Both the position numbers and the translations under genes were made by a program. A stretch of 51,182 nt of DNA from an uncultured Ruminococcus sp. (lineage in GTDB: Bacteria > Bacillota > Clostridia > Oscillospirales > Ruminococcaceae): the NCBI GenBank assembly GCA_902788785.1, contig CADALT010000015.1, positions 1-51,182 of the forward strand, written 5' to 3'. Positions within the stretch are counted from its first letter, which is position 1. The number at the start of each line of letters is the position of its first letter. Of this stretch, positions 2,971-6,210 are shown piece by piece. Under the pieces are notes generated by a model. That model was given only the letters and a program-made list of their open reading frames with translations, was not told where the DNA came from and did no database searches.

Positions 2971-3013
2971 GGGATAATTTAAGTATTTAGTAAAAATACC
3001 CTCATATTATCCC
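2971..3013. other. nested inverted repeat next to the tRNA fragment
   Basis: GGGATAAT (2971-2978) pairs with ATTATCCC (3006-3013), and inside it GTATTT (2983-2988) pairs with AAATAC (2994-2999). No T tract follows, so it is a poor terminator. It lies 30 bp after the HEPN stop and 18 bp before the tRNA remnant, where an integrase or excisionase arm site would be expected, but that role is inference. Confidence 0.45.
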
Positions 3014-3030
3014 AACAACGTTGCCTTACC

Positions 3031-3082
3031 ATTAGGTTCTAATGCCGTATGGTGTGCAGGTTCAAGTCCTGTTATCCGCACT
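3031..3082 (+). pseudogene. 3' half of a leucine-type tRNA (possible attachment site)
   Basis: The segment reads as the distal part of a class II tRNA. It begins with a loop ATTAGGT containing TAG as anticodon, then a short variable arm (gcc-gtat-ggt), then a T arm with stem GCAGG/CCTGT around the loop TTCAAGT, and ends with the acceptor strand TATCCGCA followed by CTA. No 5' partner (TGCGGATA) lies upstream and the 5' half of the anticodon stem does not pair, so the gene is truncated. Homology starting in the anticodon loop and running to the 3' end is the usual footprint of a tyrosine-integrase site in a tRNA gene. The orientation puts the element to the left, matching the AT-rich genes at 1-3030. 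Confidence 0.55.
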
Positions 3083-3110
3083 ATAAGTCGAGTATGAGTT
3101 CGACAAAAAA

Positions 3111-3146: not shown

Positions 3147-3249
3147 ATTCAAAATTATTGACATGGTGGTTTGGCAGCTTTGCTCCGCAGCTATGTTTTA
3201 GCACAGTATCAACAGAGCTGATGCTTCTAGTGACTATCTGTTTCATAAA

Positions 3250-3766
3250 GCAAATAGTCGTAACGAGCCGGCGACCCGGGCTAGGGGGAAACTACCTATA
3301 GAGCCATGCTATTTATTGCTACCGAGCGCCTGTTTTATCTATTAAACGAAACAATGTAACGAGTCGGCGTCCCGGGCTAGGGGAAACTACCTATAGAGCC
3401 ATGTTATTTATTGCTACCGAGCGCCTGTTTTATCTATTAAGCAAAACAACGTGACGAGTCGGCGACCCGGGCTAGGGGAAATATACGATGTGACAAACTA
3501 TGTTGTGCTACCGAGCGCCTATTTTATCTATTAAGCAAATAGTCGTGACGAATTGGCGTCCCGGGCTAGGGAAAATATACGATGTGACAAACTATGTTGT
3601 GCTACCGAGCGACTGTTTATTCTATTAAACAAAAAATCGTGACGAATTGGCGTCCCGGGCTAGGGGAAACTACCTATAGAGCCATGCTATTTATTGCTAC
3701 CGAGCGCCTGTTTTATCTATTAAGCAAAAAGTCGTGACGAGTCGGCGACCCGGGCTAGGGCTAGGG
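3250..3766. repeat. tandem array of six 95-bp repeats with two alternative cores
   Basis: The core CCCGGGCTAGGG occurs at 3275, 3371, 3466, 3560, 3654 and 3749, giving periods of 96, 95, 94, 94 and 95 bp. Each full unit reads: a gcaaa-rich start, GTGACGAGTCGGCG or a variant, CCCGGGCTAGGGG, a variable middle, then GCTACCGAGCGCCTG and TTTTATCTATTAA. Units 1, 2 and 5 have the middle beginning AAACTACCTATAGAGCC. Units 3 and 4 have an unrelated one beginning AATATACGATGTGAC. The sixth copy stops after the core. No frame is open across the array. Within a unit CTACC-GAG-CGCC can pair with GGCG-ACCCGG-GC-TAG downstream, so a folded RNA is possible. Terminators flank both sides. Confidence 0.9.
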
Positions 3767-3769
3767 CAA

Positions 3770-3942
3770 CAAAAAACTGCGCAAGGTAAAATCCTTCGCA
3801 GTGTTTTGCTAGGTGGACACGTTGGGGGGGATCCACCATTATTTGATTTGCTTCCGTCTGTCCGGGGGTCATGGGGGGGCAGACGGTGGTAATAATCTTG
3901 ATTTGCGTTTTGGTGTTTTGTGTATCTCTCTCTTTATCTTAC
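3770..3942 (-). ncRNA. predicted small RNA with two C-rich hairpin loops
   Basis: A minus-strand transcript would start near 3942 from the promoter at 3949-3977 and end at the terminator at 3771-3802, about 170 nt. Its first 50 nt are A-rich and unstructured. Hairpin 1 pairs CCGTCTG (3886-3880 on the minus strand) with CAGACGG (3860-3854) around a 19-nt loop holding C7 and C5. Hairpin 2 pairs GGTGGA (3837-3832) with TCCACC (3817-3812) around a loop holding C7. C-rich loops are the Shine-Dalgarno-pairing element of Gram-positive regulatory RNAs such as RNAIII and the Rsa RNAs. The LytTR-like boxes upstream and the adjacent Agr-like pair strengthen that parallel. A 50-codon ORF from 3872 runs through the terminator and is probably fortuitous. 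No homology search was possible. Confidence 0.6.
3771..3802 (-). terminator. terminator of the predicted small RNA
   Basis: On the minus strand ACTGCGAAGG pairs with CCTT-g-CGCAGT (one bulged base) and is followed by TTTTTTG. It separates the small RNA from the last repeat unit. Confidence 0.8.
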
Positions 3943-3948
3943 AAGCTT

Positions 3949-3977
3949 ATTATAGCCGATGTTTTATGATAAATCAA
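3949..3977 (-). promoter_or_regulatory. promoter of the predicted small RNA
   Basis: On the minus strand TTGATT (3977-3972), a 17-nt spacer and TATAAT (3954-3949). The start would be near 3942. No protein-coding gene lies downstream before the terminator. Confidence 0.75.
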
Positions 3978-3985
3978 GAGTTTTT

Positions 3986-4012
3986 TCCCGAAATGCAATA
4001 TTTAGTCCCGAA
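3986..4012 (-). promoter_or_regulatory. paired direct repeats, candidate LytTR operator
   Basis: TTCGGGA occurs twice on the minus strand (4012-4006 and 3992-3986), 20 bp apart, with the second copy 8 bp upstream of the -35 box. Two direct half-sites about two helical turns apart just upstream of a promoter is the usual layout for LytTR response regulators. The gene for such a regulator lies at 5385-6095. That this regulator binds here is inference. Confidence 0.5.
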
Positions 4013-4089
4013 CGGAAGATGATGTCAAAAATATCATCAAATTCGCATCGTTAATTATGCATCTTACACAAAAGTCATATCAATATCGC

Positions 4090-5379
4090 TCATACAGGAA
4101 CGGGCAGAGTTATCTCCACCGAGAAATCCGTGCTGCCTGCCTCCATGTTCAGAAGTCCCCCGTACTTCTCGACAGTGCCCCTGATTATGGTCAGTCCTAC
4201 GCCCCTGTGACCATCTTTAGTTGACTTGAATCCCTTAGAAGACTTTATTACCTTGCCATCATAGGTATTCTTGAAATTTATAAGGATAAAGCCGCCACGC
4301 TGTTCCATAGATACCGTTATGTGCTTGATGACACTGCGCTCACAGGCTTCGATGGCGTTGTCCCACAGGTTCGCAAAAATAGAAGTTATATCCATATCCC
4401 TCATGAAATCAAAGCTTATATCCTCTATATCAGTGCTTACCTCGATGCCCTGCGCTTCTGCGGCAGCTATCTTCTGGCTCATTATTATCGCCAGTATCTT
4501 ATTTGTACAGGTAAAACCTCCTGCCAGCGAATCCACATCGTCCTCTATCATCTTGCGGTACTGTCGGGCTTTCTCGGGGTCTTCACCTGCCAGCTCACTG
4601 AGTATGGCAAGATGCTTTTTGATATCGTGGATTATCTTGCGTGACTCGGAGTAGTTCTTCTCCAGCTCAACATAATGCGCAAGCTGTATCTCGTTCTGTT
4701 TCTGGAGCAGTCTGTTTTCGAGCTTTGCATTGTTTATGTCAGCCATCCTGTTTATCGAGGTTATGAAGTACATATCCAGCATCATAAAGCCTATGTGCAT
4801 CAGCAGCAGTTTATAGTTATCCGCAGGGTCGGTCAGATTAAGAGAATATTCAACAATGACAAATATCTCCAGCACCGCAAGAAGTATGAACATAGCCAGT
4901 TCACCAAGCTTGACGGTGATGCTCTCACGCTTCGAGATAAAGGTGTTTACCAGCAGATAGCTGAACAGTATCAGCAGGCAGTTCGTAAAGGATACGAACA
5001 GCTGATGCTGAGGGTCGCCAAGAATGACCGAGAAAGTGGTGTCGTTTATCAGCATCATCATCGAAGTTGCCAGCAGGTCGTTCAGTATGCCTATCAGCAT
5101 TAACACTATACCGTACAGCACTCCTCGCTTTATATCCATACCGAACATGAAAAAAGCCACCAGCAGTATCACCACCGAGGTGAAAACAAGCTTCAGGTCG
5201 GGCAGCAGGCTCATACTTATGCCCACGCCGATAGCATTGACGGCAATGTAAGAAAGTATATAGAACACACTGCTGTCCAGCTTGCGTGACTTGACCTTTG
5301 AAAGCATCAGGAACACCAGCCCGAAGAACAGCATATCCACAACGGCGATAGATATGACCTCTATCATCACATCCGACAC
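4090..5379 (-). CDS. AgrC-like sensor histidine kinase
   Basis: This 429-residue membrane kinase has about six hydrophobic segments in its first 200 residues, then a coiled linker and a GHKL-type kinase domain. The phosphoacceptor region reads KIIHDIKKHL, the N box NLWDNAIEAC and the G box GHRGVGLTIIRG. This layout is typical of AgrC/ComD-type peptide sensors. The start is GTG 5379, placed 8 nt after AGGAAGGGG, which overlaps the stop of the upstream regulator; ATG 5367 is less well placed. It follows the regulator gene by 5 nt, so the two are co-transcribed and translationally coupled. No agrB or agrD gene is visible nearby, so the signal is unknown. Confidence 0.88.
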   Translation of the reverse strand: MSDVMIEVISIAVVDMLFFGLVFLMLSKVKSRKLDSSVFYILSYIAVNAIGVGISMSLLPDLKLVFTSVVILLVAFFMFGMDIKRGVLYGIVLMLIGILNDLLATSMMMLINDTTFSVILGDPQHQLFVSFTNCLLILFSYLLVNTFISKRESITVKLGELAMFILLAVLEIFVIVEYSLNLTDPADNYKLLLMHIGFMMLDMYFITSINRMADINNAKLENRLLQKQNEIQLAHYVELEKNYSESRKIIHDIKKHLAILSELAGEDPEKARQYRKMIEDDVDSLAGGFTCTNKILAIIMSQKIAAAEAQGIEVSTDIEDISFDFMRDMDITSIFANLWDNAIEACERSVIKHITVSMEQRGGFILINFKNTYDGKVIKSSKGFKSTKDGHRGVGLTIIRGTVEKYGGLLNMEAGSTDFSVEITLPVPV

Positions 5380-5384
5380 TGCCC

Positions 5385-6095
5385 TCACCCCTTCCTGAGA
5401 TACTTGCCCAGCATATACAGGAATTCTTCCTGCCTTTGTCTGGCAAGGGGCAGCCATGTACCCGTCTGCATTATGACACCGTCAGAACGGGAATAGTTCT
5501 GCACATATTTAAGGTTCACATAGCAGGAACGGTGTATCTGGAACATCTGCTCGTTTTCAAGCTTATGGGCAAGCTGGGTAAGAGTCTCGGTAGATGTCAG
5601 CTCACCGTCTTTAAGCCCGACGATGACGGACTTTTTCTTCTGTATCAGCAGATAGCACACATCAGATGTATCAACTATCTCTGTGCCGCCTGCGGTCTCG
5701 ATCTGTATCTTTACGCTCCTGTCCTCACGGGAGGAAGCAAGGAAATCGTCCATCACAGCGAATATATCGTCCCTCTCATAGGGTTTTGAGATAAAGTCAA
5801 ATGCATGGACTTTATAGGCACTTCTCCAGTATTTACTATAGCTTGTGACGTAGACTATCGGCATGGTCATATCCATACCACGGATACGCTGGGCAGTTTC
5901 GATGCCGTTTATACCGTTCATCTCTATATCAAGAAAGATGATGTCGAACTCCTGCATATCAGCCAGCAGTTCCTCGCCTGCACTGTAAATAGCAGCGTCT
6001 ATATCGAGCTTTCTTTCCTCTGCATAGCTTTTGAGGACTTCAAGCAATTTAGACCTATCCTGCGGACTATCATCGCACATTGCGATCTTTAGCAT
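5385..6095 (-). CDS. AgrA-like LytTR response regulator
   Basis: The 236-residue protein has a receiver domain with acidic residues D8/D9, the phosphoacceptor D56 in FLDIEMNG, and KP in ISKPYERDD. The C-terminal LytTR DNA-binding domain (about 140-236) includes MFQIHRSCYVNLKYVQNYSR. LytTR regulators bind paired direct repeats upstream of promoters. A matching arrangement lies at 3986-4012, beyond the kinase gene, and would drive the predicted small RNA. AAGGA precedes the ATG by 9 nt. The promoter at 6145-6173 is divergent from that of leuB. Confidence 0.92.
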   Translation of the reverse strand: MLKIAMCDDSPQDRSKLLEVLKSYAEERKLDIDAAIYSAGEELLADMQEFDIIFLDIEMNGINGIETAQRIRGMDMTMPIVYVTSYSKYWRSAYKVHAFDFISKPYERDDIFAVMDDFLASSREDRSVKIQIETAGGTEIVDTSDVCYLLIQKKKSVIVGLKDGELTSTETLTQLAHKLENEQMFQIHRSCYVNLKYVQNYSRSDGVIMQTGTWLPLARQRQEEFLYMLGKYLRKG

Positions 6096-6144
6096 TATAT
6101 CACATCCTTTTTAGTGAGTGATCTGTATTTTATACCTAAATTAT

Positions 6145-6173
6145 AGTATAACACAATCCGACGGATAATGCAA
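6145..6173 (-). promoter_or_regulatory. promoter of the Agr-like pair
   Basis: On the minus strand TTGCAT (6173-6168), 17 nt and TATACT (6150-6145). No TTCGGGA boxes are seen upstream, so autoregulation like that of agr P2 is not evident. Confidence 0.65.
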
Positions 6174-6210
6174 ATCTTTTTTACAGACAACTGACAAAGT
6201 GCGCCGTCGG

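What the first reader, a model, noticed from the sequence alone, without database searches (positions are those of the whole stretch)
3770..4012. Predicted small RNA with C-rich loops behind a LytTR-like operator, next to an orphan Agr-like pair
Seen directly: two TTCGGGA boxes 20 bp apart, then TTGATT-17-TATAAT, then about 170 nt without a convincing gene, containing two hairpins whose loops each hold C7, and a perfect intrinsic terminator. Known: LytTR regulators bind paired direct repeats, and RNAIII-type RNAs pair C-rich loops with ribosome sites. Inference: the AgrA-like protein encoded at 5385-6095 drives a post-transcriptional regulator, analogous to agr-RNAIII but unrelated in sequence.
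Basis: partly seen in the sequence, partly recalled or inferred. Interest (0 to 1): 0.78.

Follow-up and report, generated by a model that had tools for sequence, protein, structure and literature searches.

The report
Regulator-controlled small RNA with cytosine loops
A Ruminococcus genome appears to carry a small RNA gene with two cytosine-rich loops next to a sensor-regulator pair that probably switches it on; the control site recurs in two related species, but no relative of the RNA itself was found and its targets are unknown.

Summary
On the minus strand from 4012 to 3771 lie two TTCGGGA boxes 20 bp apart, TTGATT-17-TATAAT, two hairpins whose loops each hold C7, and a terminator with one bulged base. 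C7 runs are rare: 3 in 371 kb, two of them here. Folding z is -3.65.

New evidence ties the boxes to the adjacent AgrA-like regulator. Only two close relatives of it turned up. Both carry the same site in their own promoters: same box spacing, 8 or 9 bp to -35, 17 bp to TATAAT (0 of 2000 shuffles each; none of 103 other LytTR upstream regions scores as well). The window's regulator promoter lacks it.

Not supported: the hairpins were found in no relative, and loop pairing with ribosome sites is no better than controls. No RNAIII or 6C match in Rfam.

Best reading: a lineage-restricted small RNA, the strongest recognisable target of an orphan LytTR two-component system. It would work like VirR/VR-RNA or AgrA/RNAIII, with a 6C-like shape. 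Transcription, activation and targets are inferred.

The parts
4006..4012 (-). operator half-site 1, TTCGGGA
   Evidence: counterpart in two orthologue promoters
3986..3992 (-). operator half-site 2, TTCGGGA
3949..3977 (-). promoter TTGATT-17-TATAAT
   Evidence: same spacing in the orthologue promoters
3771..3942 (-). predicted small RNA, start about 3942 (inferred from the -10)
   Evidence: fold z -3.65 over 3938-3771; no convincing ORF
3854..3886 (-). hairpin 1, loop with C7 and C5 (C7 at 3873-3879)
3812..3837 (-). hairpin 2, loop with C7 (C7 at 3824-3830)
3771..3802 (-). intrinsic terminator, 10-bp stem with one bulged G, then T6
   Evidence: not listed by the ungapped scan
5385..6095 (-). 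LytTR response regulator (receiver + LytTR)
   Evidence: Pfam PF00072, PF04397
4090..5379 (-). sensor kinase with HATPase_c_5; GTG start at 5379 chosen by ribosome-site score
   Evidence: Pfam PF14501, PF02518; start

Best explanation
The minus-strand segment 3942-3771 encodes a non-coding RNA of about 170 nt. The response regulator encoded at 5385-6095, once activated by its kinase (4090-5379), binds the two direct-repeat half-sites just upstream of -35 and recruits RNA polymerase (inferred from studied LytTR regulators). The RNA is the strongest recognisable target of this regulator in its genome. Its two cytosine loops would pair with G-rich mRNA sites (inferred from 6C/B11 and RsaA RNAs; no target shown). 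The RNA is lineage-restricted in the data held, while its operator also occurs, in two related species, in the regulator's own promoter; the circuit may have been rewired from self-activation to an RNA output.
For: Boxes, promoter, hairpins and terminator in one unit. Two of 3 C7 runs in 371 kb are the two loops. Same operator-promoter layout in the promoters of both close relatives of the regulator: score 1, 0 of 2000 shuffles each; lowest score among 103 other LytTR upstream regions is 4. In 1.26 Mb of fetched, partly overlapping DNA every site scoring 2 or better is this locus or one of these two promoters. The only perfect full-pattern site in the own genome is this one; the other 7 of 8 have 3 mismatches. 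Layout agrees with studied LytTR operators (PMC6193735, passages). Hfq is encoded.
Against: No relative of the RNA: BLASTN 1 of 29 genomes, self; covariance model self only above 19.2 bits in 29 genomes, and in 297 family genomes no convincing match among the 17 inspected. G009 has the regulator and a kinase but no such RNA behind it. Predicted loop-target pairing is no better than shuffled or reversed hairpins; G6 before ATG is not enriched (30 against 36 in the control). The relaxed operator score was chosen after the G009 site had been seen. No expression data.
Confidence: 0.55

Rival explanations
1. The promoter is regulator-controlled, but the transcript is not a trans-acting RNA: it is the structured leader of a gene lost from the segment now holding the 94-bp repeat array, or it acts by binding a protein.
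For: No target signal above control; no relative of the RNA; a repeat array begins directly behind the terminator.
Against: A terminator closes the unit before the array; twin C7 loops are very unusual here and suit RNA pairing.
Confidence: 0.2
2. The RNA is real but is controlled by another LytTR regulator of the genome, or is not regulated through these boxes.
For: The own genome has 16 matches to this regulator at E 0.001 or better; the window regulator's own promoter lacks the site.
Against: The layout was found before both close relatives of this regulator and before none of 103 other LytTR upstream regions.
Confidence: 0.1
3. Short-peptide gene: the 50-codon ORF at 3720-3872 minus is translated.
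For: An ATG-started ORF exists.
Against: C7 instead of a Shine-Dalgarno sequence before the ATG, start inside a hairpin loop, ORF runs through the terminator into the repeats.
Confidence: 0.04
4. Not functional: a decaying or chance arrangement without a stable transcript.
For: No conservation of the RNA in any genome searched; the species is represented by one assembly.
Against: Perfect boxes and promoter, twin C7 loops and fold z -3.65 in one unit.
Confidence: 0.11

Closest known systems
VirS/VirR - VR-RNA of Clostridium perfringens
   Same: A two-component regulator drives a regulatory RNA through paired boxes one 21-bp step apart; [quoted passage not shown] That VirR is a LytTR protein is recalled.
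   Different: Other box sequence, 20-bp step; the RNA here is about 170 nt, against 386 nt for VR-RNA; regulator-RNA dependence not tested here
AgrC/AgrA - RNAIII of Staphylococcus aureus
   Same: LytTR regulator with direct repeats upstream of the promoter of a regulatory RNA (PMC4227749, passages); C-containing loops that pair with ribosome sites (PMC3961350, passages)
   Different: No AgrB next to this pair; no RNAIII match in Rfam; regulator and kinase score far below the AgrA and AgrC cut-offs
6C RNA (B11) of Actinobacteria
   Same: Two stem-loops, each with a run of about six or more cytosines (PMC4046766, passages); B11 loops can act on G tracts before target genes (PMC10470900, passages)
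   Different: Other phylum; no 6C match up to E 10; LytTR-type operator in front; no target signal here
HdrRM/BrsRM LytTR regulatory systems of Streptococcus mutans
   Same: 9-bp direct repeats separated by 11-13 bp, 4-11 bp upstream of -35, giving autoregulation (PMC6193735, passages), as in the two orthologue promoters here
   Different: Here a receiver-LytTR protein with a kinase, and in the window an RNA instead of the regulator's own promoter

Membership tests
LytTR-type operator | two direct repeats about 20-22 bp apart just upstream of -35 | tested here: met
   20-bp step, 8 bp to -35, against the layout in PMC6193735
LytTR-type operator | bound by the neighbouring regulator | not testable with these tools
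   indirect: same site in the promoters of both close relatives of the regulator
agr system | AgrB and AgrD encoded beside AgrC/AgrA | tested here: not met
   only AgrB match in the genome is on contig C31; AgrD was not searched for separately
agr system | regulator and kinase reach the AgrA/AgrC family cut-offs | tested here: not met
   48.7 of 400 bits and 25.7 of 500 bits
RNAIII (Rfam) | match to the family model | tested here: not met
   no match at gathering nor up to E 10
6C RNA (Rfam) | match to the family model | tested here: not met
   no match up to E 10
6C RNA (Rfam) | two hairpins, each with at least six C in the loop | tested here: met
   C7 in both loops
C-loop antisense small RNA | loops complementary to ribosome sites beyond composition | tested here: not met
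   shuffled (hairpin 1) and reversed (both hairpins) controls bind 313 start regions as well
VR-RNA type circuit | RNA level depends on the regulator | not testable with these tools
   needs expression data or a mutant
conserved small RNA family | sequence or structure conserved in relatives | tested here: not met

The most novel reading that the evidence does not exclude
Circuit rewiring: an orphan LytTR two-component system that in related species seems to activate its own promoter has, in this lineage, the same operator in front of a newly arisen twin-C-loop small RNA instead, so that the RNA became the system's main or only output. It would be an independent origin of 6C-like RNAs outside Actinobacteria.
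Probability: 0.3. Interest if true: 0.66.

Novelty: new variant of a known kind. Interest (0 to 1): 0.5.

Why it matters
RNA effectors of LytTR-type two-component systems are known mainly from pathogens (RNAIII, VR-RNA). A further, sequence-unrelated case in a gut bacterium, with the operator traceable in relatives in which the RNA was not found, would show how such RNA outputs arise. It also gives a concrete, testable binding site for an uncharacterised regulator.

Tried and rejected
Conservation of the RNA. BLASTN in 29 congeneric genomes (own included): 1 of 29, self. Pattern C6-N30-60-C6: 25 rows in 9 of 29 genomes; in the 25 loci fetched for them the twin stem-closed layout occurs only at this locus, plus one repeat-like case, L085. 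Covariance model R1, built from this single sequence: self 161.1 bits, next 19.2 bits in 29 genomes. In 297 family genomes, 25 others had a match at E 0.05 or better (26 rows); I saw the fold of 17 of these 26 and six model alignments: terminator matches or noise, none with two C6 loops by eye. The other 9 were not inspected.

Target prediction. The kinase's own start region was attractive (rank 1 of 44 window genes for the loops) but fell to rank 14 of 313 by loop energy and 19 of 313 by co-folding with a 320-kb background. Shuffles of hairpin 1 bind it as well in 30 of 60 cases, and both hairpins reversed bind start regions as well as the real ones; hairpin 2 was not shuffled. Rejected. The strongest pairing (L291:9965) is not trusted for the same reason.

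G6 before ATG in the own genome: 30 matches against 36 in the reversed control. The 12 exact TTCGGGA pairs in other congeners were read: none has the hairpins in the 220 bases printed behind it; most look like coding DNA by eye, which was not tested. The control reverses the promoter words too, so its lower count is not a fair background.

Caveats on the operator test. The relaxed score (TTCGG core) was chosen after the G009 site had been seen by eye. With strict seven-base boxes G009 scores 3 and G026 scores 4; five block-shuffled windows gave none at 4 or better. In one search the comparison regions start at the protein match, which for some loci lies inside the gene, so some of the 103 may miss the true promoter.

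Full report
What is there. Read on the minus strand from 4012, the sequence shows TTCGGGA, 13 bp, TTCGGGA, 8 bp, TTGATT, 17 bp, TATAAT, an A-rich unpaired leader, a 7-bp hairpin with a 19-nt loop holding C7 and C5, a 6-bp hairpin with a loop holding C7, and a terminator ending at 3771. The pair of boxes is unique in the window and absent from 100 shuffles; it is the only exact pair in the 2.95-Mb genome. The 168-nt stretch folds at -36.6 kcal/mol, z -3.65. In the window plus a 320-kb sample of the genome there are 12 runs of C6 or longer on both strands and 3 of C7 or longer; two of those three are the loops, 49 nt apart. The 50-codon ORF starts in the first loop without a ribosome site and runs through the terminator. 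Rfam has no match at gathering in the window, and up to E 10 only two unrelated eukaryotic families over 3741-4040.

Neighbours. Upstream on the same strand lie a receiver-LytTR response regulator (5385-6095) and a kinase with HATPase_c_5 (4090-5379). They score far below the AgrA and AgrC cut-offs (48.7 of 400 and 25.7 of 500 bits), so 'AgrA-like' is a description, not a membership. The one AgrB match in the genome lies on contig C31 beside another such pair, so this pair is orphan. The kinase gene ends 77 bp before the operator; one search lists no terminator between them, but that scan also misses the bulged terminator of the RNA, so read-through from the kinase is possible.

Who binds the boxes. 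Two close relatives of the regulator turned up: 67% in G009 (Ruminococcus sp. RGIG4311, roe deer) and 71% over 173 residues in G026 (uncultured Ruminococcus, SRR873597 bin), among 29 congeneric genomes and in the named genome collection, where the next of the 80 loci kept (of 309 found) is 35%. Both regulator promoters hold the same layout: TTCGTCC-13-TTCGGGA-8-TTGCTT-17-TATAAT and TTCGGTC-13-TTCGGCA-9-TTGCAA-17-TATAAT (alignment). No shuffle of 2000 of either 200-bp region is as good; of 105 other LytTR loci (2 too short to use) the best of 103 upstream regions scores 4, against 1 for each of the two. In 1.26 Mb of fetched, partly overlapping DNA every site scoring 2 or better is this locus or one of these two promoters. 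The relaxed core was chosen after the G009 site was seen; strict-box scores are 3 and 4, with none at 4 or better in five block-shuffled windows. Some of the 103 comparison regions may miss the true promoter. The layout agrees with studied LytTR systems: repeats separated by 11-13 bp, 4-11 bp upstream of -35 (PMC6193735, passages). The window regulator's own promoter has no such site. In the own genome the full promoter pattern has one perfect site, this one; the other seven have 3 mismatches. In G009 a further site with one mismatch precedes what reads as an ABC-exporter operon (identified by eye).

Conservation of the RNA. None was found. BLASTN: 1 of 29, self. C6-gap-C6: no relative with the twin-hairpin layout apart from a repeat-like case. 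Covariance model: self 161.1 bits, next 19.2 bits in 29 genomes. In 297 family genomes 25 others had matches at E 0.05 or better; the 17 of 26 matches inspected are terminator matches or noise. G009 has no such RNA behind its kinase. In G026 the contig ends inside the regulator gene and the genome is 76% complete, so absence there is less certain. No second genome of the window's own species was seen, so selection on the RNA could not be measured.

What the RNA may do. C-loop RNAs of other bacteria act on ribosome sites or G tracts: B11/6C (PMC10470900, passages), RNAIII and RsaA (PMC3961350, passages). Here the evidence does not reach that far. The kinase's own start region ranked first of 44 genes but 14th of 313 with a larger background, and shuffled or reversed hairpins bind the 313 start regions as well. 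G6 before ATG is not enriched. Hfq is encoded in this genome and in both relatives, so a chaperone is available. Target and sign of regulation remain open.

Comparison with the known. It would work most like VirR/VR-RNA of Clostridium perfringens, where a regulator encoded apart from agrBD drives a regulatory RNA through paired boxes (PMC4963840, passages), and like AgrA/RNAIII (PMC4227749, passages). In shape it resembles 6C RNA, named for two stem-loops with six cytosines each (PMC4046766, passages). It matches neither RNAIII nor 6C RNA in Rfam. Two searches of the paper library showed no report of such an RNA among the titles listed (10 of 297 papers, 12 of 17; listings only), which is a narrow check.

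Verdict. Shown: the sequence unit, its rarity, the same operator layout before the two related regulators, and the lack of detectable relatives of the RNA. Inferred: transcription, activation by the regulator, RNA-RNA action, and the order of events in the rewiring. The boldest reading left open is a rewired circuit in which an operator that serves the regulator's own promoter in relatives now serves a newly arisen RNA.

Noticed in passing
window 3245-3768 (+): Tandem array of 94-95-bp units, about six copies, directly behind the terminator; 56 BLAST matches in the own genome, 2 in G017, 4 weak ones in G002, none in the other 26 of 29 genomes. Some copies elsewhere carry C6 runs. Nature unknown.
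   Followed up: partly
window 3010-3085 (+): Looks by eye like the 3' half of a tRNA with a long variable arm (ARAGORN reports no tRNA), beside a gene with a sub-threshold HEPN_Swt1 match (1549-2940) and a gene without Pfam match (355-1134): possible edge of an integrated element.
   Followed up: no
window 6158-6210 (-): The regulator's own promoter region holds an inverted repeat CCGACGG / CCGTCGG (6204-6210 and 6158-6164) instead of the TTCGGGA boxes; possibly another operator.
   Followed up: no
L239 (G009:C26, 24933-24996): Operator-promoter site with one mismatch upstream of what reads as an ABC-exporter operon with a kinase: candidate further target of the orthologous regulator.
   Followed up: partly
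L238 (G000:C31), 3344-6206: A regulator, kinase and AgrB in a row: a conventional agr-like locus in the same genome.
   Followed up: partly
L012 (G001:C2, 28660): TTCGGGA-12-TTCGGGA about 45 bp before a start codon of a gene whose product begins like a secreted protein, in a congener whose best match to the regulator is only 25%.
   Followed up: no
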